Notes under the pieces: model-generated
What the model was told of the DNA's origin: nothing
The model's input: the letters and a program-made list of their open reading frames with translations, nothing else
Databases searched by the model: none
Source: Candidatus Thorarchaeota archaeon
Lineage (GTDB): Archaea > Asgardarchaeota > Thorarchaeia > Thorarchaeales > Thorarchaeaceae
NCBI GenBank assembly: GCA_011365025.1
Contig: RDOF01000036.1
Coordinates: 19,632-27,695, forward strand
DNA: 8,064 nt
Direction of reading: 5' to 3'
Shown here: positions 196 to 8,064 of the stretch, piece after piece
Layout of the letters: each line of letters begins with the position of its first letter
How positions within the stretch are numbered: position 1 is the stretch's first letter
Program-made: the position numbers and the translations under genes

Positions 196-2226
196 CTAAA
201 TTCGTGTGAGGCCAAATCCTTCTTTCATCATCCCCAATCTTATGCCTGCCAAAAACCAGGTTAAGAGCGAAAGAACTTCAAGTCCAGTAATTAGAGTCAC
301 TAAGATCGTTATTACGAGCGATACTTCAACTGGGCTTGGAAATCCTGAGAATACTCCGAGGACGAGAATTGCCACCACTGCACCAAAAACTAGACCCGCA
401 ATGCTAGACACGCGGATCAGCTGCCCCTCGAAAGCATGGCCTGTCTCTTCTACATCTGAGGCTAAGTTGAGGTTGAGGGACAAAACCAAGACAAACGATA
501 TGGCATACAGGGCCATAAGCAAGGCTGCACCAGTACTGGCAATATGAATAATCCCAACGTTACCTGCAATCAAAGGCACAATTAGGGCAAATAGAACACT
601 CATTCCCATGAGGAGTTCTCCTCCTGTGTAGCCCCTGCCATGTGCGTAGCCTGCAAGTGCAACATTTCTGATCAGCAACATCATCATTGGCAGCGCTACT
701 ACAGTGTAAGCTTGTATTGTCCAATCGATGTCGCCAAAGAGGGTGATGGGAAACCATCTGTTAGTAGGCCACATTGCTGCAGGGCCAGTGCCGAAGAATC
801 CTAGTATGAATAGCAGGAATACAATAGATGCTGCCATGCTCACAATGACGGTCAAAAAGCCTTGTGAGAAACTTGTTAGTCCCCGGGTGGATGATTCAAT
901 CATCAGAAATGTCTGAGTCACAAGGACAGCAATCCATGGTAAGATGACCAACCAAGATATGACAAAGGGATGGATTAGCATAGCGATTGAAGCGACGACG
1001 AGAGGCATCCCGGTGACAATGTCTGATGTTGATGCATAGACTGCACCCATCATGAACATGACACCGATTGGAGCCACAGAAATCAAGAATGACCATGATT
1101 CGGGGTCAAGCACCAATGTACCACCAAAAGCTGTTGCAATCACACCAACAGCGGCCAGAAGAAGCATGCCCCCCTTGGAACCACCTTTGATAATATCATC
1201 CCCAATGTGCGCCGCCTTTAGTTCCTTTGCTCCCAAGCGTGGTGCCAACATAACCCAATAGAGCTGGATTGCACAGAAGGCAAAGACAAGCCAAGCGTTA
1301 GCACCGCCAGATGGAACGCCAAAAGGATGCCACACTTCCGCTCCTCCAACCAAGCCAATTGGACCGATGAGGACAGCTGCAGATCCAATTATGAAGCTTA
1401 GAAGGCCCGTAATTCCAAAAGCCCTCTTGGCCCATTCAGAGCTTCGTGCAAATTCACGGATGGAACTTAGCGGGGACCACCAGAAGAGCAATGCGAAGAG
1501 CTGTCCAATGAGCAGAACCAGATAAGCAAGCGTGACAATCGATGGACCCAGTACAAAGCCCACTGCTAAAAGCGGAATAAACAGAGCGTTGAAAATTCCT
1601 GCAAAACTGCCTATCCAGCTCTTTGACGCATCAGTGTAGAGCACAGGAATCAGCTGAAAGACAATCGTGAAAAGCGCTAAGTATAGAGTTAAGCCAGTGA
1701 TGAAATCCCGAATTTGCTGTGGATATACCGGAAATTCAACGTTAAGCGCAAAGAAGAGAAGCAGAACTGCTGCAAAAGCGGTCGCAAGGTGGAGGACATA
1801 GCCCATTTGTCCACCCAATCTGACTCTCAGTTCCTTTGAACCATACATTTGGAGGAATAATCCTAGGGTTAGCAAGCCCATAAAGACAGTTACTGATAAC
1901 ACGTAGCTGGTATCTTGCAGACTGGCAATGCTCACTCCTGGGAAAGGCAAGAGCACCATGCCGCTTGTCATCCCGAAGATCGCGGCAAATATGCCGACGA
2001 TAGCACCAATTCCACTAATTCTCCCAACCTGATCGAAACGTTCACCCTCTGGGGTTGTTTGGGTTAGAATTGACTTGACGCTGACGCCACCTTCATAAAC
2101 TCCTCCGGAACTGGTGATTCCGGATGCGCCACCTTTCCGACTTCTTCTCCAGCAAATGATAAACGAAGCTAGAACAATTGCTGCCATGAATAGGAAATTT
2201 AAGCTTGGGTCTGAAAATGCCTGCAT
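196..2226 (-). CDS. large polytopic membrane protein, function unknown
   Basis: A 676-residue protein I do not recognise as any named family. It has one N-terminal membrane segment (about 11-26), then a basic, Gly-rich stretch with WRRSRKGG (26-33) that by the positive-inside rule should be cytoplasmic. About 17-18 further hydrophobic helices follow between residues 70 and 667, joined mostly by short loops. The helices carry few charged residues, so no transport or catalytic site stands out. Three stretches of about 200 residues begin similarly (RISGIG at 69, RAFGITG at 268, a weaker match near 455) and carry a KEL-like motif further in (SKELR 130, AKELK 333, GGELL 535), hinting at internal repeats. 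The start ATG at 2226 has a TGAGG ribosome binding site (2240 to 2236) 9 bases upstream. It leads a likely two-gene unit with the downstream alpha/beta hydrolase and is divergent from the small gene and oxidoreductase. A role in transport or envelope lipid metabolism is a guess from the neighbour only. Confidence 0.85.
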   Translation of the reverse strand: MQAFSDPSLNFLFMAAIVLASFIICWRRSRKGGASGITSSGGVYEGGVSVKSILTQTTPEGERFDQVGRISGIGAIVGIFAAIFGMTSGMVLLPFPGVSIASLQDTSYVLSVTVFMGLLTLGLFLQMYGSKELRVRLGGQMGYVLHLATAFAAVLLLFFALNVEFPVYPQQIRDFITGLTLYLALFTIVFQLIPVLYTDASKSWIGSFAGIFNALFIPLLAVGFVLGPSIVTLAYLVLLIGQLFALLFWWSPLSSIREFARSSEWAKRAFGITGLLSFIIGSAAVLIGPIGLVGGAEVWHPFGVPSGGANAWLVFAFCAIQLYWVMLAPRLGAKELKAAHIGDDIIKGGSKGGMLLLAAVGVIATAFGGTLVLDPESWSFLISVAPIGVMFMMGAVYASTSDIVTGMPLVVASIAMLIHPFVISWLVILPWIAVLVTQTFLMIESSTRGLTSFSQGFLTVIVSMAASIVFLLFILGFFGTGPAAMWPTNRWFPITLFGDIDWTIQAYTVVALPMMMLLIRNVALAGYAHGRGYTGGELLMGMSVLFALIVPLIAGNVGIIHIASTGAALLMALYAISFVLVLSLNLNLASDVEETGHAFEGQLIRVSSIAGLVFGAVVAILVLGVFSGFPSPVEVSLVITILVTLITGLEVLSLLTWFLAGIRLGMMKEGFGLTRI

Positions 2227-2571: not shown

Positions 2572-4392
2572 ATGGATGGTTGGCAAGGCAAGGTTCTCTG
2601 GGTAGATCTATCGAAGAAGGAAACTCGGATTGAGGAACTGGATGAAGAAGTAAGCAAGATGTTCATTGGAGGAAAGGGCTTGGGCGCCTATTTGCTCTAC
2701 CGTGAGCTGAGTGCTGGTATCGACCCACTCGGTCCCGATAATATTCTGCTTTTCTTGAATGGCCCTTTGCAAGGATTACCAGCACCAAGTGTGGGTAGGT
2801 GGACTCTTGTAACAAAATCCCCACTCACAGGGCTGTTTCTTGATGCTCATTGTGGTCATGCATTGGGAAGGGAAATCAAGAACGCCGGGTTTGACGCCAT
2901 TGGGGTTAGAGGCCAGGCCACTTCAATGACTACCTTAGTAATTGAAGATGACAATGTACGCTTCGAATCCGCCGAAGACCTTCGCGGTCGCGGGGTTCAA
3001 GAGACAACAGATGCAGTTCATTCTCGTGCCCCAAAGGGCTCAATAGTATATGCAATTGGGCCTGCAGGCGAGAATCTGGTGAAATTCGCGTCGGGCGCGT
3101 GTGAACTGGCTCACTGGACTGGCAGGGGCGGAGCTGGTTCAGTGATGGGTTCGAAGAATCTAAAGGCCCTTGCTGTGAAAGGGACCGGTGCTGTCTCTGC
3201 GGCTGACAAAGATGTTCTGAAGGAAGTGAATAGAGAAGTTGCAGAAACATGGCGCAACAAAGACTTTCTTGTTGAATTCAAGGACTATGGCACTCCTTTC
3301 TTGGTTGAGCTAGCAAATCAACGGGGGCAATTTCCAACCCGGAATTGGGAGAGTGGATATTTTGAGGAATACGAGGCCCTGCAGCCTGATAACCTGCAGC
3401 ACTTGGACGCAGGGAATAGACATTCTTGTCCTCACTGCATAATGAGGTGCACCTACGCTTTTTGGACCACTGACCCAAGAGATGAGGAACGAAAAGTGGA
3501 GTCTGCAATTGAATACGAAACCTTCGGTCTTCTTGGCGGCAATCTAGGAATTGGCGACCCGGAGAGTGTGCTCAAGCTGGCATATCTAGCTGATGACCTA
3601 GGACTCGATACGATCAGCACGGGCGGCGTGATTGGATTTGCCATGGAGGCCTTCCAGAAGGGAATCTTGTCGGAAGAGGACATTGCCTTTCCGCTCCAAT
3701 TCGGTGATGGGGCGGCCGCTATACGACTCATGCAGATGATTGCGCAACGCGAAGGAATTGGGGACATATTAGCTGATGGAGTACGTGCCGCTGCAGAGAG
3801 AATTGGGAAGGGCTCCGCTGAATTTGCTGTTCACACAAAAGGGATGGAGTATCCTGCGTGGGATCCAAGAGGTAAGAAGGGTCTCGGAATGTCTTTTGCC
3901 ACTGCTGAGGTGGGAGCTAGCCACCTAAGGGGGTGGCCTGCAACAAATGACTTGCCCGATGGGCCTGCTTTTGATTTGATCGAGTCTATGGTGAACGCCA
4001 GGAATGAAAAACATCTGGTAGACTCAATGGTTGTCTGTCACTTCACATATCATCTCCCGCTGACCCTCTCGCAGAAAATCAGATTGCTTAACGGAGCGAC
4101 AGGGCTGAATTACGATGAGGATTCAATTACACTCTTCGGAAACAGAGTGGAAGCGCTCACCAGACTCTTCAACATCCGCGAAGGCGTCACACGCAGTTCG
4201 GATGTTCTCCCACCACGATTCTGGGAGGCGTCAAAGGCTGGTCCTGCAAAGGGAATGTCTGCCTTCATCAGCAAAGAGGACTTCCAAGCAAGCTTAGACA
4301 GATTCTATGAACTGAGAGGATGGGATCACTTGGGCGTACCAACATCCAAAACACTAAAGGCGACTGGTCTAGACTTACTCATTGATTCGTAG
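2572..4392 (+). CDS. aor: aldehyde ferredoxin oxidoreductase (tungsten/molybdopterin type)
   Basis: A complete 606-residue member of the AOR family, close to the usual length of about 605. In this family a bis-pterin tungsten (or molybdenum) site oxidises aldehydes to carboxylic acids and passes electrons through one 4Fe-4S cluster to ferredoxin in the cytoplasm. Visible landmarks are FIGGKGLGAYLLY near the N-terminus (31-43), GRGGAGSVMGSKNLKAL (184-200), and the cluster ligands Cys286-x2-Cys289-x3-Cys293 with the fourth at Cys489. The first pterin motif DxxGLD is intact at 341-346 (DDLGLD). The second, which should read DxxGLC, is DSMVVC at 484-489, so the Asp and Cys are kept but Gly-Leu is replaced by Val-Val. 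Glu314 in EYET and His451 in SHLRG are candidates for the active-site acid and base of the family. The start ATG has GGATGA (2559-2564) 7 bases upstream, a modest site. It is flanked by two small genes in the same direction. Substrate class within the family cannot be decided from sequence alone. Confidence 0.95.
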   Translation: MDGWQGKVLWVDLSKKETRIEELDEEVSKMFIGGKGLGAYLLYRELSAGIDPLGPDNILLFLNGPLQGLPAPSVGRWTLVTKSPLTGLFLDAHCGHALGREIKNAGFDAIGVRGQATSMTTLVIEDDNVRFESAEDLRGRGVQETTDAVHSRAPKGSIVYAIGPAGENLVKFASGACELAHWTGRGGAGSVMGSKNLKALAVKGTGAVSAADKDVLKEVNREVAETWRNKDFLVEFKDYGTPFLVELANQRGQFPTRNWESGYFEEYEALQPDNLQHLDAGNRHSCPHCIMRCTYAFWTTDPRDEERKVESAIEYETFGLLGGNLGIGDPESVLKLAYLADDLGLDTISTGGVIGFAMEAFQKGILSEEDIAFPLQFGDGAAAIRLMQMIAQREGIGDILADGVRAAAERIGKGSAEFAVHTKGMEYPAWDPRGKKGLGMSFATAEVGASHLRGWPATNDLPDGPAFDLIESMVNARNEKHLVDSMVVCHFTYHLPLTLSQKIRLLNGATGLNYDEDSITLFGNRVEALTRLFNIREGVTRSSDVLPPRFWEASKAGPAKGMSAFISKEDFQASLDRFYELRGWDHLGVPTSKTLKATGLDLLIDS

Positions 4393-4579: not shown

Positions 4580-5332
4580 TTATTTCATGGCATCATAAAT
4601 GTCGTTGATGCATTTTGTGAATTCGCTTTCCGGATGACGCATAGTAACCAGGTACCTGCTTCCTACCTCAATAAGAAGAGGTAGGAGGGGTATTATCGTG
4701 CAGACCTTTGTCTTGAATTTTTGTTCCACTTCTCTTGTAATTGCCTTATCCTCGTACTTCTTTGGCTTCTTGTTGATAACAATTTGAGTGTCCGGGACCT
4801 GCAGCTTTTTCGCGACACTAAGCGTGGCGGCGGTGCCTAGGAGGTCCTGTTCATCAATCCTTGCCACAACAAAAAGATTGTCTGCCGTAGCCATGCTCAG
4901 GAGTGTTTCTCGATCTAGGCCTGGATGCGTGTCGATTATGAGATAGTCTAATGCTTTTGATTTAATTACTTCACTAAAGCCATTCCGTAAATCACTGACC
5001 TCATATCCTTCTCTGAGAATTCGAGTGATATCACTGGCGGACATGGAGCTTGGAATAAGGAATAGCTTTCCCCTCTTTATGCCCTGTTCTTCTGTTAGAT
5101 CAATACAGGTATCTGTGATGTTGCATGAGCCTCGCAAATAGTCGTTTAGGGTATATTTCAGCTTTCGCCTACCAAGGCCAAAGATGACGTGAATTCCTGG
5201 AGATTGGACATCTGTGTCCATAACGGCGACCCTCTTGCCATCGAGTGCTGCCATTGCGGCAAGGTTGGCTGCTATATTCGACTTGCCGGTGCCGCCCCTG
5301 AAACTGTGGATGCTAACGATTTTGGATGTCAT
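4580..5332 (-). CDS. MinD/ParA-family P-loop ATPase
   Basis: A 250-residue SIMIBI-class ATPase of the MinD/ParA group, the usual size. The deviant Walker A motif is FRGGTGKSN (residues 11-19), with Arg12 where the family signature Lys (KGGxGKT) normally contacts the partner subunit's nucleotide. Next come the switch I region VMDTDVQSPG (near 37-46) and Walker B LDYLIIDTHPGL (near 128-139). Such proteins dimerise on ATP and cycle on and off a surface (membrane, DNA or a partner protein), and are controlled by an activator. The C-terminus (INDIYDAMK) shows no obvious MinD-type membrane-targeting helix. The start chosen is the second ATG, 5332: AGGTG (5344 to 5340) lies exactly 7 bases before it but only 1 base before the first ATG at 5338. 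With the first ATG, the gene would overlap the stop of regulator B as ATGA. Either way the two genes abut and are likely translated together, so B is a good candidate partner. Confidence 0.92.
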   Translation of the reverse strand: MTSKIVSIHSFRGGTGKSNIAANLAAMAALDGKRVAVMDTDVQSPGIHVIFGLGRRKLKYTLNDYLRGSCNITDTCIDLTEEQGIKRGKLFLIPSSMSASDITRILREGYEVSDLRNGFSEVIKSKALDYLIIDTHPGLDRETLLSMATADNLFVVARIDEQDLLGTAATLSVAKKLQVPDTQIVINKKPKKYEDKAITREVEQKFKTKVCTIIPLLPLLIEVGSRYLVTMRHPESEFTKCINDIYDAMK

Positions 5333-5334
5333 TA

Positions 5335-6618
5335 TCATGCACCTGCCTTTTTGTTGAAAGTCACTTGAGCACCCAATTCCCTGAGCACATCAAGTATTTT
5401 CGACACTGATATCCCTGTTATTCTTGATATCTCCTTAATGGACAGTTCGCCAGTGCAGTGACTCCAAATGATGTCAAGGACCTTATAATCCCTTGTGGAA
5501 ATCCCAACGACCTCAAGAAAGGCCGCAAATCTCTTGTCTTTTTCTCCAAGCTTTGGATATAGCCTCATTACTTTTACTGCACCTTTTGCGATTAGGTGGG
5601 CAATAGTCTCATCAACTTGAGCTCTGCTAAATCCCGTTATCTCATGAATCTCAGATATGGTAGTTTCACCCCCAATTTTTCCCAACACCTGTTTCAGTCT
5701 CGCAAGCAGTGCTTCTTCCACTTCGGGATAGAGCGCCAGAAGGTCATTCAGAATCTCAGATATAGGTCTCAAAGGAACGGGCACATCATAGTCGTAGAAC
5801 GCCATCGGCGCTTCGGTCTTACTTGGCGTTACTTTCTTCAATCCTTCAAAACTGAGCCTCCGAATTCTATCAACAAGGCCTTTCGCAGTATTAGCAAGAT
5901 CTGCATCGGTTTCATCAGATTTGACAACGAAAGCACATATAGCTCGTCCAGGGACTCCTACCACAAAGAATGAGGTTCCCTTCTCCAAACCGGGATGACT
6001 TAGAATTGACCCTGTTTCTGCTTCAGGTTTCTCTCTTGACTGACTTTCCAAGAAATCAAAGACATCTTCCAACTCATACGCGCGAAGGTTTGAGAGAAGA
6101 ATATATTCATCATCTGTAATGACAGCTCCCCTCAAGATGCCAGGGTCTTCCTCGATCCTGTCTAGGCAGTCCTTAATCGATGAGAGCTCTGCCACTGGCA
6201 GGAGCGCGGTTTTGTAACGTCGGGCAAGTCCAGGTATGCCGCTGAATTTCTGCAAAGTCGTTTCGACCGTGGCTGAAAATGATGAGAACTTCTTCAGGTC
6301 TGGATATTCCTGTCTTAGCTCCGAGTAGTAGGTACTTACAAAATTCCCTGCTAGGTCCTGTAGAATAACACGATAGATCTCAGCACTATCATGCTGTGAA
6401 ACCAGGGCAATGAAGTATAGGTCTCCTTTCTTGACCCAAACAAACTTGTTTGCAGCAAAGGAAATGACGGTGATTTGTTCATTTCCAACCTCTAAAGCCA
6501 TTGCACCAAGTGCAGACAAGAATGCAGACACAAGCTCATCCAGCTTTCTTTTTCCACTGACATGATAGTGAAACAATGGTATTCCTGTTTCTTTAAGGAT
6601 GATAATCTCCTTGACCAG
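5335..6618 (-). CDS. regulator B: longin/roadblock-like N-terminus, second roadblock-like segment, tandem winged helices
   Basis: A protein of about 427 residues, paralogous to its upstream neighbour A. The N-terminal domain (1 to about 105) starts with a strand (VKEIIILKETGIPLFHY) and continues with a KLDEL helix and alternating strands and helices, like longin/roadblock-type domains. Residues about 150-255 (RGAVITDDEYILLSN, later GTSFFVVGVPGRAICAFVV) look like a second roadblock/LC7-type domain and have no counterpart in A. A Pro-rich linker (YDYDVPVPLRP) leads to two winged-helix-like units (about 305-351 and 377-421) that align well with A. The start is placed at CTG 6618 because GGAGG lies 8 bases upstream, the first strand is otherwise lost, and it aligns residue for residue with A. 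A gene caller would use TTG 6576 (413 aa; AGGA 6 bases upstream). Its stop abuts the ATPase start. A role as a sensor or switch partner of the ATPase or of small GTPases is inference; DNA binding by the winged helices is possible but unproven. Confidence 0.85.
   Translation of the reverse strand: MVKEIIILKETGIPLFHYHVSGKRKLDELVSAFLSALGAMALEVGNEQITVISFAANKFVWVKKGDLYFIALVSQHDSAEIYRVILQDLAGNFVSTYYSELRQEYPDLKKFSSFSATVETTLQKFSGIPGLARRYKTALLPVAELSSIKDCLDRIEEDPGILRGAVITDDEYILLSNLRAYELEDVFDFLESQSREKPEAETGSILSHPGLEKGTSFFVVGVPGRAICAFVVKSDETDADLANTAKGLVDRIRRLSFEGLKKVTPSKTEAPMAFYDYDVPVPLRPISEILNDLLALYPEVEEALLARLKQVLGKIGGETTISEIHEITGFSRAQVDETIAHLIAKGAVKVMRLYPKLGEKDKRFAAFLEVVGISTRDYKVLDIIWSHCTGELSIKEISRITGISVSKILDVLRELGAQVTFNKKAGA
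5340..5344 (-). promoter_or_regulatory. ribosome binding site deciding the ATPase start
   Basis: AGGTG at the very end of regulator B, 7 bases before ATG 5332 and 1 base before ATG 5338. The spacing favours ATG 5332. Because the site lies within the last codons of B, ribosomes finishing B would be placed to start the ATPase. Confidence 0.65.
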
Positions 6619-6626
6619 TGGGGGCG

Positions 6627-6631
6627 CCTCC
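6627..6631 (-). promoter_or_regulatory. strong ribosome binding site before a CTG start (regulator B)
   Basis: GGAGG (6631 to 6627; AGGAGG with the preceding base) is the best Shine-Dalgarno match in the window and lies 8 bases before CTG 6618. No ATG, GTG or TTG lies at a suitable distance from it in the reading frame. It is 51 bases or more from the TTG at 6576, too far to serve that codon. Confidence 0.6.
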
Positions 6632-6658
6632 TGTTGACAGAATCAAGTCACCCTATGC

Positions 6659-6668
6659 TTAAAATATC
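6659..6668 (-). promoter_or_regulatory. promoter element GATATTTTAA of regulator B
   Basis: GATATTTTAA on the minus strand ends 27 bases before the GGAGG site and 40 bases before CTG 6618. It matches the element upstream of the paralog A in 9 of 10 positions (GATATYTTAA) at nearly the same distance from the gene. A TATA box here would start transcription close to 6635, giving a short leader that includes the ribosome binding site. It sits in the 75-base gap after the stop of A, so B and the ATPase may be transcribed separately from A. Confidence 0.55.
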
Positions 6669-6693
6669 TGCCTTGAATCGCATGAGATGTTTT

Positions 6694-7593
6694 TTAGCTA
6701 GTGGCGAGCCCTCTCACCTCAACAAACTCCCACTCCACCTCATCTCCAAGTTTCCGCAAAACCTCATAGAGCCGCTCCGATGTAACTCCGAGTTTCTCGC
6801 TAATCTCTGCCATTGCACGGCTTCCTGTGCAAAGGGATACTGCTCTGGTTAGAAGCTGGTAGTCCTTTCTGGGCAATCCAATTAAATCAAGAAAGGCATC
6901 AAATCTGGCGTCCGCCTTGCCAATTCTGGGACACATCTTTGATATCTTCATTATTCCCCAAATTGCCAAATATTCAACTACATCTAGAACCTCTTCTTCC
7001 TCGATGCCAAGCTGCTCACTTATCTCGTAAATAGGCGTTCTTCCATCTATTGCAGCAAGCACCCTTGTACCATTATTCCCAAAGTCGCGATGAAACTCAT
7101 CAATGAGCCCTCCCGAGTCACTGGCCAGCCTAAATGCACCCTCTTTAATCGTTGGAACTACGAAGGCGCTGAGACTGGAGGTAATTACCAATATCCCCTC
7201 GTAGAATGAGAAAGCTCTCTCAACCTCTTCCCGGAATTCCGCATATGCTTCCTCCGTGGGCAGTTCCAGTTCCATGTGTTGCTGGTATTCTGCATGAAAC
7301 TTGCGGCTGAGATCTCGTAGTACTGCACGTAGCACATTAGAGGGCGCCTCAGTATCTACGAGAAGAATAAGCAGGGCTCCAGTTTCTCCCTGTTCATACA
7401 ACAACTCCGAGCCTTCAAAGGAGAGGCTTTGTACTGTCTTCTCCCCAAATTCCGATGCAAAGGATGTTATTGCGGCCAGAAATCCAGACAGGAGTTCATC
7501 TAATTTTCGAGAGTCATCTTGTGAGTAGTGGAATATCGGAACACCGCCTGGGAGAAGCACCATAAACTCGTGCACCTTTAATTGTCCAGCCAT
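6694..7593 (-). CDS. regulator A: longin/roadblock-like domain with tandem winged helices
   Basis: A 299-residue paralog of regulator B. The N-terminal domain (about 6-130) opens with VHEFMVLLPGGVPIFHY and an RKLDELLSGFLAAI helix, then a strand pair and a helix (APSNVLRAVLRDLSRKFHAEY begins near 83), in the pattern of longin/roadblock-type domains seen in many archaeal proteins of unknown role. A connecting region (about 131-172) follows. Then come two winged-helix-like units: RVLAAIDGRTPIYEISEQLG and onward (about 177-218), and DYQLLTRAVSLCTGSRAMAE and onward (244-290). Between them, CPRIGKADARFDAFLDLIGL matches YPKLGEKDKRFAAFLEVVGI in B. It lacks B's second roadblock-like segment. The ATG at 7593 has AGGTGA (7607 to 7602) 8 bases upstream. 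It is the first of three genes running towards the ATPase and diverges from a membrane protein gene. Function unknown; a sensory or GTPase/ATPase-linked regulator is likely from the architecture. Confidence 0.88.
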   Translation of the reverse strand: MAGQLKVHEFMVLLPGGVPIFHYSQDDSRKLDELLSGFLAAITSFASEFGEKTVQSLSFEGSELLYEQGETGALLILLVDTEAPSNVLRAVLRDLSRKFHAEYQQHMELELPTEEAYAEFREEVERAFSFYEGILVITSSLSAFVVPTIKEGAFRLASDSGGLIDEFHRDFGNNGTRVLAAIDGRTPIYEISEQLGIEEEEVLDVVEYLAIWGIMKISKMCPRIGKADARFDAFLDLIGLPRKDYQLLTRAVSLCTGSRAMAEISEKLGVTSERLYEVLRKLGDEVEWEFVEVRGLATS

Positions 7594-7601
7594 TCCTCAA
7601 C

Positions 7602-7607
7602 TCACCT
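7602..7607 (-). promoter_or_regulatory. ribosome binding site of regulator A
   Basis: AGGTGA (7607 to 7602) lies 8 bases before ATG 7593, the same spacing as GGAGG before CTG 6618 in the paralog B. This makes it a useful reference for placing the start of B. Confidence 0.65.
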
Positions 7608-7635
7608 TCAAAAGGATGCACTTTTCATTGTCACT

Positions 7636-7645
7636 TTAAGATATC
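7636..7645 (-). promoter_or_regulatory. promoter element GATATCTTAA of regulator A, possibly bidirectional
   Basis: GATATCTTAA on the minus strand ends 28 bases before the AGGTGA site and 42 bases before ATG 7593, matching the layout upstream of B. On the plus strand the same bases read TTTAAGATATC, which also resembles a TATA box and could serve the divergent membrane protein gene at 7701 with a leader of about 35 bases. The rest of the 107-base intergenic stretch has no clear feature. Confidence 0.5.
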
Positions 7646-7700: not shown

Positions 7701-8064
7701 ATGAGGACGCGATTCGCAATTGGGCGTCTGTTTACAGATGGTGAGGAGATGCTAGAATACAGAGAATTTCCGAAACGGACAGCAGCCAATTACCTGGTTT
7801 ATTCACCATTCATGGCGTACTGCATCTATGTAATCAGCAGTCTTTCGAAAGGCACCTTCGCCTCAACAATTACAGTCGACAACGCTCTTTATCTTGGCCT
7901 CGGATTTGGACTCGCGTCAATCACGCTTCTGATAATAGGGCAGATTATAGATAGAACACGCCTTGTGCCATACCTGTTGATTGCAGGAGCCTTGTTACCA
8001 ACACTCATGGGTTTCTACCGGTATTTTGCAGTCGCCATGGGTACTATCACACCTGATATCGAAT
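7701..8064 (+). CDS. multi-pass membrane protein, MFS-transporter-like, N-terminal part only
   Basis: The first 121 codons of a gene that leaves the window at the right edge. After a polar N-terminus there are three hydrophobic segments: about 30-49 (NYLVYSPFMAYCIYVISSLS), 62-84 and 88-113. The loop GQIIDRTRLVP (80-90) after the second segment resembles motif A of the major facilitator superfamily (GxxxDRxGR), which lies between helices 2 and 3 in that family. The match is partial and only the first helices are visible, so the family call is tentative. ATG 7701 is the first start after an upstream region without another start in frame, and lacks a clear ribosome binding site. ATG 7749 (residue 17) has GGTGAGG (7740-7746) very close upstream and is an alternative. 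It is divergent from regulator A and may share its promoter region, which suggests possible control by A. Confidence 0.7.
   Translation, partial: MRTRFAIGRLFTDGEEMLEYREFPKRTAANYLVYSPFMAYCIYVISSLSKGTFASTITVDNALYLGLGFGLASITLLIIGQIIDRTRLVPYLLIAGALLPTLMGFYRYFAVAMGTITPDIE

What the first reader, a model, noticed from the sequence alone, without database searches (positions are those of the whole stretch)
4580..7645. Candidate undescribed module: two longin/roadblock-winged-helix paralogs with a MinD-like ATPase
Three same-strand genes encode two paralogs with a longin/roadblock-like N-terminus and tandem winged helices, plus a MinD/ParA-type ATPase whose start abuts the stop of the second paralog. 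Roadblock-type proteins are known regulators of small Ras-like GTPases (for example MglB with MglA), and MinD/ParA proteins need a partner that triggers hydrolysis. The coupling suggests that B (and perhaps A) is that partner, and the winged helices would connect the switch to DNA or serve as protein-binding modules. I know of no named system with this composition.
Basis: inference. Interest (0 to 1): 0.75.

Follow-up and report, generated by a model that had tools for sequence, protein, structure and literature searches.

The report
Asgard longin–MinD four-gene membrane module
In two groups of Asgard archaea a MinD-like molecular switch is kept beside one or two proteins built like parts of eukaryotic membrane-traffic regulators, and near a divergent membrane protein with a possible DNA-binding tail; the cluster seems undescribed and its function is untested.

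Summary
Three same-strand genes of a Thorarchaeota-like (Asgard) sequence encode A (longin + tandem winged helices), B (longin + roadblock + tandem winged helices) and a MinD-like ATPase whose ATG overlaps B's stop. Adjacency: 45 of 227 Asgard genomes hold both B and the ATPase, all on one contig and strand, 43 of 45 within 105 nt, in two lineages that share no other flanking ORF that I compared except a fourth gene. Folds: models match longin and roadblock structures; the best multi-domain matches are chains of Mon1-Ccz1, Fuzzy-Inturned, BLOC-3 and GATOR1. The ATPase has Arg for the signature Lys (49 of 49 distinct sequences). In a second Asgard ATPase group a smaller longin gene directly follows in 16 of 35 loci. 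Best reading: a longin platform coupled to a MinD-like ATPase at a membrane. Co-function is well supported; the biochemistry is untested.

The parts
4580..5338 (-). MinD/ParA-like ATPase, 252 aa, start overlaps stop of B (ATGA)
5279..5305 (-). deviant Walker A motif SFRGGTGKS; Arg replaces the signature Lys of MinD/ParA (signature recalled)
   Evidence: RGGTGKS in 49 of 49 distinct orthologue sequences; invariant in 17 aligned rows
5335..6618 (-). gene B, 427 aa, probable CTG start: longin + roadblock + tandem winged helices
6238..6618 (-). B longin domain (residues 1-127)
5842..6207 (-). B roadblock domain (residues 138-259)
5344..5721 (-). B tandem winged helices (residues 300-425)
   Evidence: Pfam TrmB 35.9 bits, cut-off 25.6; model
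6694..7593 (-). gene A, 299 aa: longin + tandem winged helices
7177..7578 (-). A longin domain (residues 6-139)
6718..7107 (-). A tandem winged helices (residues 163-292)
   Evidence: Pfam TrmB 31.4 bits, cut-off 25.6; model
7634..7640 (-). TATA-like CTTAAAG about 40 nt before A; similar elements before A in most of the 17 Thor loci printed
   Evidence: judged by eye, not scored
7749..8064 (+). fourth gene M, partial (runs off the window): MFS-like membrane protein; complete relatives end in an HHH_5 helix-hairpin-helix domain
   Evidence: window piece matches 5 of 10 relatives searched, the five Thor ones, at 34-42%; family

Best explanation
A conserved Asgard module of four proteins. A and B pair through their longin domains into a platform like those of Mon1-Ccz1 or Nprl2-Nprl3. 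The platform engages not a Ras-like GTPase but the MinD-like ATPase encoded next to it, and controls its ATP cycle or its recruitment. The divergent MFS-like protein M anchors the assembly at the membrane, and its C-terminal helix-hairpin-helix tail could hold DNA or a partner. The likely purpose is spatial: positioning a membrane- or nucleoid-bound complex, as MinD/ParA ATPases do in bacteria (recalled). Shown here: gene content, linkage, predicted folds, conservation, the Arg-for-Lys change. Inferred: the A-B dimer, its contact with the ATPase, the role of M, and the purpose.
For: Linkage: B and ATPase lie on one contig and strand in 45 of 45 genomes that hold both; 35 of 37 Thor-like pairs within 40 nt, 8 of 8 of the second lineage within 105 nt between matched ends. 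Control: of 76 ORFs >=120 aa around the eight second-lineage loci, 23 match the 33 Thor loci (blastp 1e-10): 8 ATPase, 8 B, 7 M and nothing else. M is in 49 of 227 Asgard genomes, 46 of them with B, and lies divergent from A (or from B in the second lineage) in 47 of 47 genomes with both on one contig, 45 within 104-221 nt between matched ends. Recurrence with another ATPase group: a longin gene of about 200 aa directly follows in 16 of 35 loci, and another winged-helix gene adjoins in 11 more (9 of the 16 built the profile). In G214 and G215 B is absent and A adjoins the ATPase, so a longin-winged-helix gene stays next to it. Longin helix alpha1 is among the most conserved segments of both A and B. 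Folds.
Against: No complex was predicted or tested. Thor and the second lineage may share a common ancestor that had the module, so shared linkage need not be independent. ATPase orthologues in G090, G091 and G093 have no B-level match in the genome; there the ATPase adjoins other small proteins (L072-L074). B can be lost (G214, G215). A is linked less tightly than B: 2-4 kb away in L007 and L030, about 13 kb away on the other strand in G191. The roadblock domain is the least conserved of the segments of B that I scored. Eight of 35 second-group ATPases show neither kind of neighbour at my threshold, and Pfam sees a longin in only 3 of 5 of the small neighbours scanned (L080, L081, L095; not L094, L100). 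HHH_5 domains need not bind DNA. Profiles of A and B find no significant match among solved sequences, so the eukaryotic likeness rests on fold comparison with low whole-chain TM scores and on Pfam hits that for A and B of the window are below cut-off.
Confidence: 0.42

Rival explanations
1. A-B is a conventional longin/roadblock GEF or GAP for a Ras-like GTPase encoded elsewhere; the MinD-like ATPase only localises the complex, as ParA-type ATPases carry cargo.
For: The best multi-domain fold matches are chains of Rab GEFs and of the Rag GAP GATOR1. [quoted passage not shown]
Against: None of the six window proteins scanned against Pfam is a Ras-like GTPase. The pairing of longin-winged-helix genes with MinD-like ATPases recurs in a second ATPase group, which suggests that the ATPase is the direct partner.
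Confidence: 0.27
2. A and B are DNA-binding regulators: A controls the divergent transporter-like gene M (a classic divergent regulator and transporter layout) and the ATPase is a ParA-like partition or accessory ATPase.
For: TrmB-type winged helices above the Pfam cut-off in A and B; divergent arrangement with 104-221 nt between matched ends in 45 of 47 genomes; M keeps a GRK motif as MFS transporters do (recalled); B's second recognition helix is mildly basic.
Against: First recognition helix of A negatively charged in 24 of 24 sequences; only three weak inverted repeats in the window's intergenic region; the conserved intergenic elements look like promoter elements (by eye).
Confidence: 0.18
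3. The clustering is only inherited gene order with no functional link.
For: Unrelated neighbours (AFOR, a 71-aa ORF, a membrane protein) are also kept beside the ATPase across many Thor loci.
Against: Those neighbours are not found in the second-lineage loci, while ATPase, B and M remain together; similar pairs occur with another ATPase group.
Confidence: 0.07

Closest known systems
GATOR1 subunits Nprl2/Nprl3 (Rag GTPase GAP)
   Same: N-terminal longin and C-terminal winged helices (PMC3521125, passages). The top eight Foldseek matches of A are chains of GATOR1 or SEA complexes, E 2.6e-7 to 1.4e-6; that these chains are Nprl2/Nprl3 is inferred, the output names only the complexes. HTH_NPRL3 is hit by 9 of 28 B and 3 of 24 A members at E<=0.1, best 1.8e-4 and 3.4e-4.
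   Different: A is smaller, B has a roadblock domain in between, the linked switch is an ATPase; no significant sequence-profile match (NPRL2 E 0.74).
Mon1-Ccz1, Fuzzy-Inturned and HPS1-HPS4 (Rab GEFs with longin subunits)
   Same: Longin subunits that work in pairs (recalled); B's best Foldseek match is 8c7g_C at 3.5e-9, and VIA aligns both longin and second domain of B to Fuzzy and Mon1-complex chains. Their first-longin Pfam model is hit by 26 of 28 B and 20 of 24 A members at E<=0.1.
   Different: Low whole-chain TM (0.2-0.3), no third longin, winged helices instead, ATPase partner.
MinD/ParA positioning ATPases with their partner proteins
   Same: Fold, Walker A Lys, operon partner.
   Different: Arg instead of the signature Lys; the partner is a longin protein, not MinE or ParB.
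MglA/MglB
   Same: Roadblock protein beside a nucleotide switch.
   Different: The switch is a P-loop ATPase of the MinD class, not a Ras-like GTPase.

Membership tests
MinD/ParA ATPase | MinD/ParA-type P-loop domain | tested here: met
   Pfam AAA_31 65.7 bits (cut-off 27), CbiA 54.3 (25.4)
MinD/ParA ATPase | signature Lys in KGGxGK[ST] (definition recalled) | tested here: not met
   Arg in 49 of 49 distinct orthologues; the second Asgard ATPase group has Lys in 31 and Arg in 2 (L099, L141) of the 33 loci whose motif was read, 2 of 35 unread
MinD (NCBIfam minD_arch) | score above the curated cut-off | tested here: not met
   79.5 bits against 201.75
MinD | C-terminal membrane-targeting helix | not tested
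   not computed
GATOR1 Nprl2/Nprl3 | N-terminal longin domain | tested here: met
   models and fold searches of A and B
GATOR1 Nprl2/Nprl3 | C-terminal winged helices | tested here: met
   Pfam TrmB above cut-off, models
GATOR1 Nprl2/Nprl3 | significant sequence-profile match to the family | tested here: not met
   best NPRL2 E 0.74 with the A profile, none with the B profile
GATOR1 Nprl2/Nprl3 | GAP activity on Rag GTPase | not testable with these tools
   biochemistry
Mon1/Ccz1 type Rab GEF | three longin-type domains (recalled) | tested here: not met
   B has two in the model (longin, roadblock), A one
Mon1/Ccz1 type Rab GEF | heterodimer of two longin subunits | not testable with these tools
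   paralogy of A and B shown; dimer not tested
MglB roadblock | roadblock fold | tested here: met
MglA/MglB system | adjacent Ras-like GTPase | tested here: not met
   the P-loop neighbour is MinD/ParA-like
TrmB regulators | TrmB winged helix above cut-off | tested here: met
   A 31.4, B 35.9 bits, cut-off 25.6
TrmB regulators | DNA-binding surface | tested here: inconclusive
   A's first recognition helix acidic; B's second mildly basic, mean +1.0

The most novel reading that the evidence does not exclude
Asgard archaea run a membrane-based switch in which a longin/winged-helix heterodimer, the architectural forerunner of eukaryotic Nprl2-Nprl3 and Mon1-Ccz1-type regulators, governs a MinD-class ATPase with an arginine in the signature position and ties it to a membrane protein with a DNA-holding tail: a chromosome-to-membrane or complex-positioning machine, and evidence that longin platforms served ATPases as well as GTPases before eukaryotes.
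Probability: 0.22. Interest if true: 0.9.

Novelty: new variant of a known kind. Interest (0 to 1): 0.7.

Why it matters
Longin and roadblock platforms are known mainly as regulators of Ras-like GTPases. A conserved genomic marriage to a MinD-type ATPase would widen that rule and give Asgard archaea a candidate positioning system. A 2012 paper proposed, if Npr2/Npr3 go back to the last eukaryotic common ancestor, that a longin domain was fused to winged helices in the eukaryotic stem (PMC3521125, passages); A and B show this combination already in Asgard archaea, next to a testable partner.

Tried and rejected
Considered and dropped: a truncated ATPase in G215 as a sign of decay (it is a run of N, an assembly gap); plain transcription factors (kept as a rival); an operator palindrome between A and M (one search gave three weak inverted repeats). 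Profile searches of solved sequences found nothing significant for A or B. The VIA lists mostly test residues 4-168 of A and 1-259 of B, so the winged helices are barely tested there. A first, cruder count of divergent M genes over 58 partly redundant loci gave 40; the per-genome count replaces it. Source labels of the second lineage disagree (Hermodarchaeota, Hodarchaeota, Thorarchaeota, Promethearchaeota), so I call it 'second lineage'. Weaker longin or winged-helix matches to the B profile exist in 215 of 227 Asgard genomes (E<=1e-3); 16 such loci were fetched and none of the 16 showed the MinD-like ATPase in the fetched stretch with my profile, so the pairing belongs to certain subfamilies only. 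Ten paper searches found no description of this module; the library holds only open-licence papers, and two wanted papers were not held. No multimer prediction was possible with the tools.
Full report
What is there. The window holds three same-strand genes A (6694-7593), B (5335-6618) and a MinD-like ATPase (4580-5338). B and the ATPase overlap by ATGA, and 75 nt lie between A and B. B probably starts at CTG 6618, eight bases after GGAGG; its homologues start MVKEI or LVKEI. Relatives of B that carry a source's organism name are Candidatus Thorarchaeota with one Lokiarchaeota label among the 120 listed. The scan of named genome contigs gave 33 loci: 29 labelled Thorarchaeota, 2 Lokiarchaeota, 2 only 'archaeon'. 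The window's own genome is not held.

Linkage. In the 33 named loci A lies upstream of B on the same strand in 33 (2-4 kb away in L007 and L030), and the ATPase follows B in 30; in the other three B runs into the contig end. Over 227 unnamed Asgard genomes the ATPase orthologue (E<1e-48) is in 50 and B (E<1e-80) in 47; 45 have both. All 45 are on one contig and strand (B is split over two contigs in G197 and G222); 35 of 37 Thor-like pairs have at most 40 nt between matched ends, the exceptions being G196 (1220) and G191 (3351), and 8 of 8 second-lineage pairs have 37-105 nt. B without ATPase: G216 and G223, where B reaches a contig end. ATPase without B: G090, G091, G093, G214 and G215. In G214 and G215 A adjoins the ATPase with no B between, and the best B-profile match in these genomes is A itself. 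In G090, G091 and G093 the ATPase adjoins other small proteins; two of them (L073, L074) look by eye like coiled coil plus winged helix. In the second lineage there is one B-like gene and no A at the locus. The tree places A, Thor B and second-lineage B each as one clade (midpoint root, for drawing only).

Control. Thor loci also keep an AFOR gene, a 71-aa ORF and a membrane protein near the ATPase, so linkage within Thor alone proves little. In the second-lineage loci (5-14 kb each) those genes are not found. Of 76 ORFs of 120 aa or more there, which include spurious overlapping frames, 23 match the 33 Thor loci at 1e-10: 8 ATPase, 8 B and 7 copies of one divergent gene.

The fourth gene. That divergent gene (M) encodes a multi-pass protein, about 470-570 aa in the complete ORFs inspected, with weak MFS similarity (2 of 18 members) and a C-terminal HHH_5 domain (18 of 18 at E<=0.01; above the cut-off in the four members; membrane segments by a hydropathy script). 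It is in 49 of 227 Asgard genomes at E<=1e-20, 46 of them with B (G192 has B only; G203, G214 and G215 have M without B). It lies divergent from A, or from B in the second lineage, in 47 of 47 genomes with both on one contig, 45 within 104-221 nt; exceptions are G193 (1332) and G196 (2455), and in G202 the two are on different contigs. In G191, where A lies about 13 kb from B, M stays beside A. The window holds the first part of M, 7749-8064; it matches 5 of the 10 relatives searched, the five Thor ones, at 34-42%.

The ATPase. It has RGGTGKS in 49 of 49 distinct orthologues, where MinD/ParA proteins have a signature Lys (recalled). A second Asgard group, 26-35% identical (matches between 1e-33 and 1e-20), has Lys in 31 and Arg in 2 of the 33 loci whose motif was read. 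All 35 of its loci were fetched. In 16 of 35 a longin gene of about 200 aa follows the ATPase directly; in L093 it is cut by the contig end, so its winged helix is unseen, and in L148 the winged-helix match is weak. Nine of the 16 built the profile, the other 7 are further hits. Eleven more adjoin another winged-helix gene; eight show neither at my threshold, though L144's neighbour matches the B profile at 6e-4. The small longin proteins match A and B by profile comparison (E 3.3e-10 and 2.3e-10); Pfam sees a longin in 3 of 5 scanned.

Mechanism. The most conserved segments of A and B include longin helix alpha1 and a helix between the winged helices; in Thor B a linker after the longin scores highest. 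In known longin platforms that first helix lies in the GTPase-binding face (recalled). The first recognition helix of A is acidic, which speaks against DNA reading by that helix. I therefore favour an A-B platform that binds and controls the ATPase, with M as membrane anchor. The A-B dimer, its contact with the ATPase and the task of M are inferences.

Literature. Passages seen: PMC10933270 (Asgard roadblock and longin proteins; MK-D1 GTPase genes generally not in operons with them), PMC3521125 (Npr2/Npr3 carry a longin and tandem winged helices; fusion proposed in the eukaryotic stem), PMC9834061 (a legend naming an 'NPRL2-like longin domain' among signature proteins of a Lokiarchaeon), PMC11188069, PMC9481161. 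PMC10307638 holds none of five terms sought. So longins of NPRL2 type in Asgard were noted before; the module with a MinD-like ATPase and M was not found in the searches listed under Tried and rejected.

Noticed in passing
window 2572-4392 and 2321-2536: Aldehyde ferredoxin oxidoreductase gene with a 71-aa ORF before it; both recur next to the module in many Thor loci but were not found in the second-lineage loci.
   Followed up: partly
window 196-2226: 676-aa membrane-like protein without a Pfam or NCBIfam match, kept beside the AFOR gene in many Thor loci.
   Followed up: no
L125:5237-6355: 372-aa Asgard protein above the Pfam cut-off for the first longin of FUZ, MON1 and HPS1 (40.8 against 26.1 bits).
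   Followed up: partly
L127:5800-6831: 343-aa A-like protein above the Pfam cut-off for the NPRL3 C-terminal HTH (29.5 against 27.2 bits).
   Followed up: partly
L122:2891-3775, with similar genes in L119-L121 and L123: Longin-like N-terminus with a C-terminal V4R domain (34.4 bits, cut-off 31; only L122 was scanned), in a repeated cluster with two small ORFs in L120-L123.
   Followed up: partly
L087:7390-9882, L089:4407-6899, L136: Second-group ATPases followed directly by a protein of about 830 aa of unknown kind.
   Followed up: no
G210:C333:70800-72059; G001:C1:1542082-1543656; G214:C38:2012-3619; G080:C80:2562-3998: One in-frame stop reported in the B match of G210 and in the M matches of G001, G214 and G080; sequencing error or decay, not resolved.
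   Followed up: no
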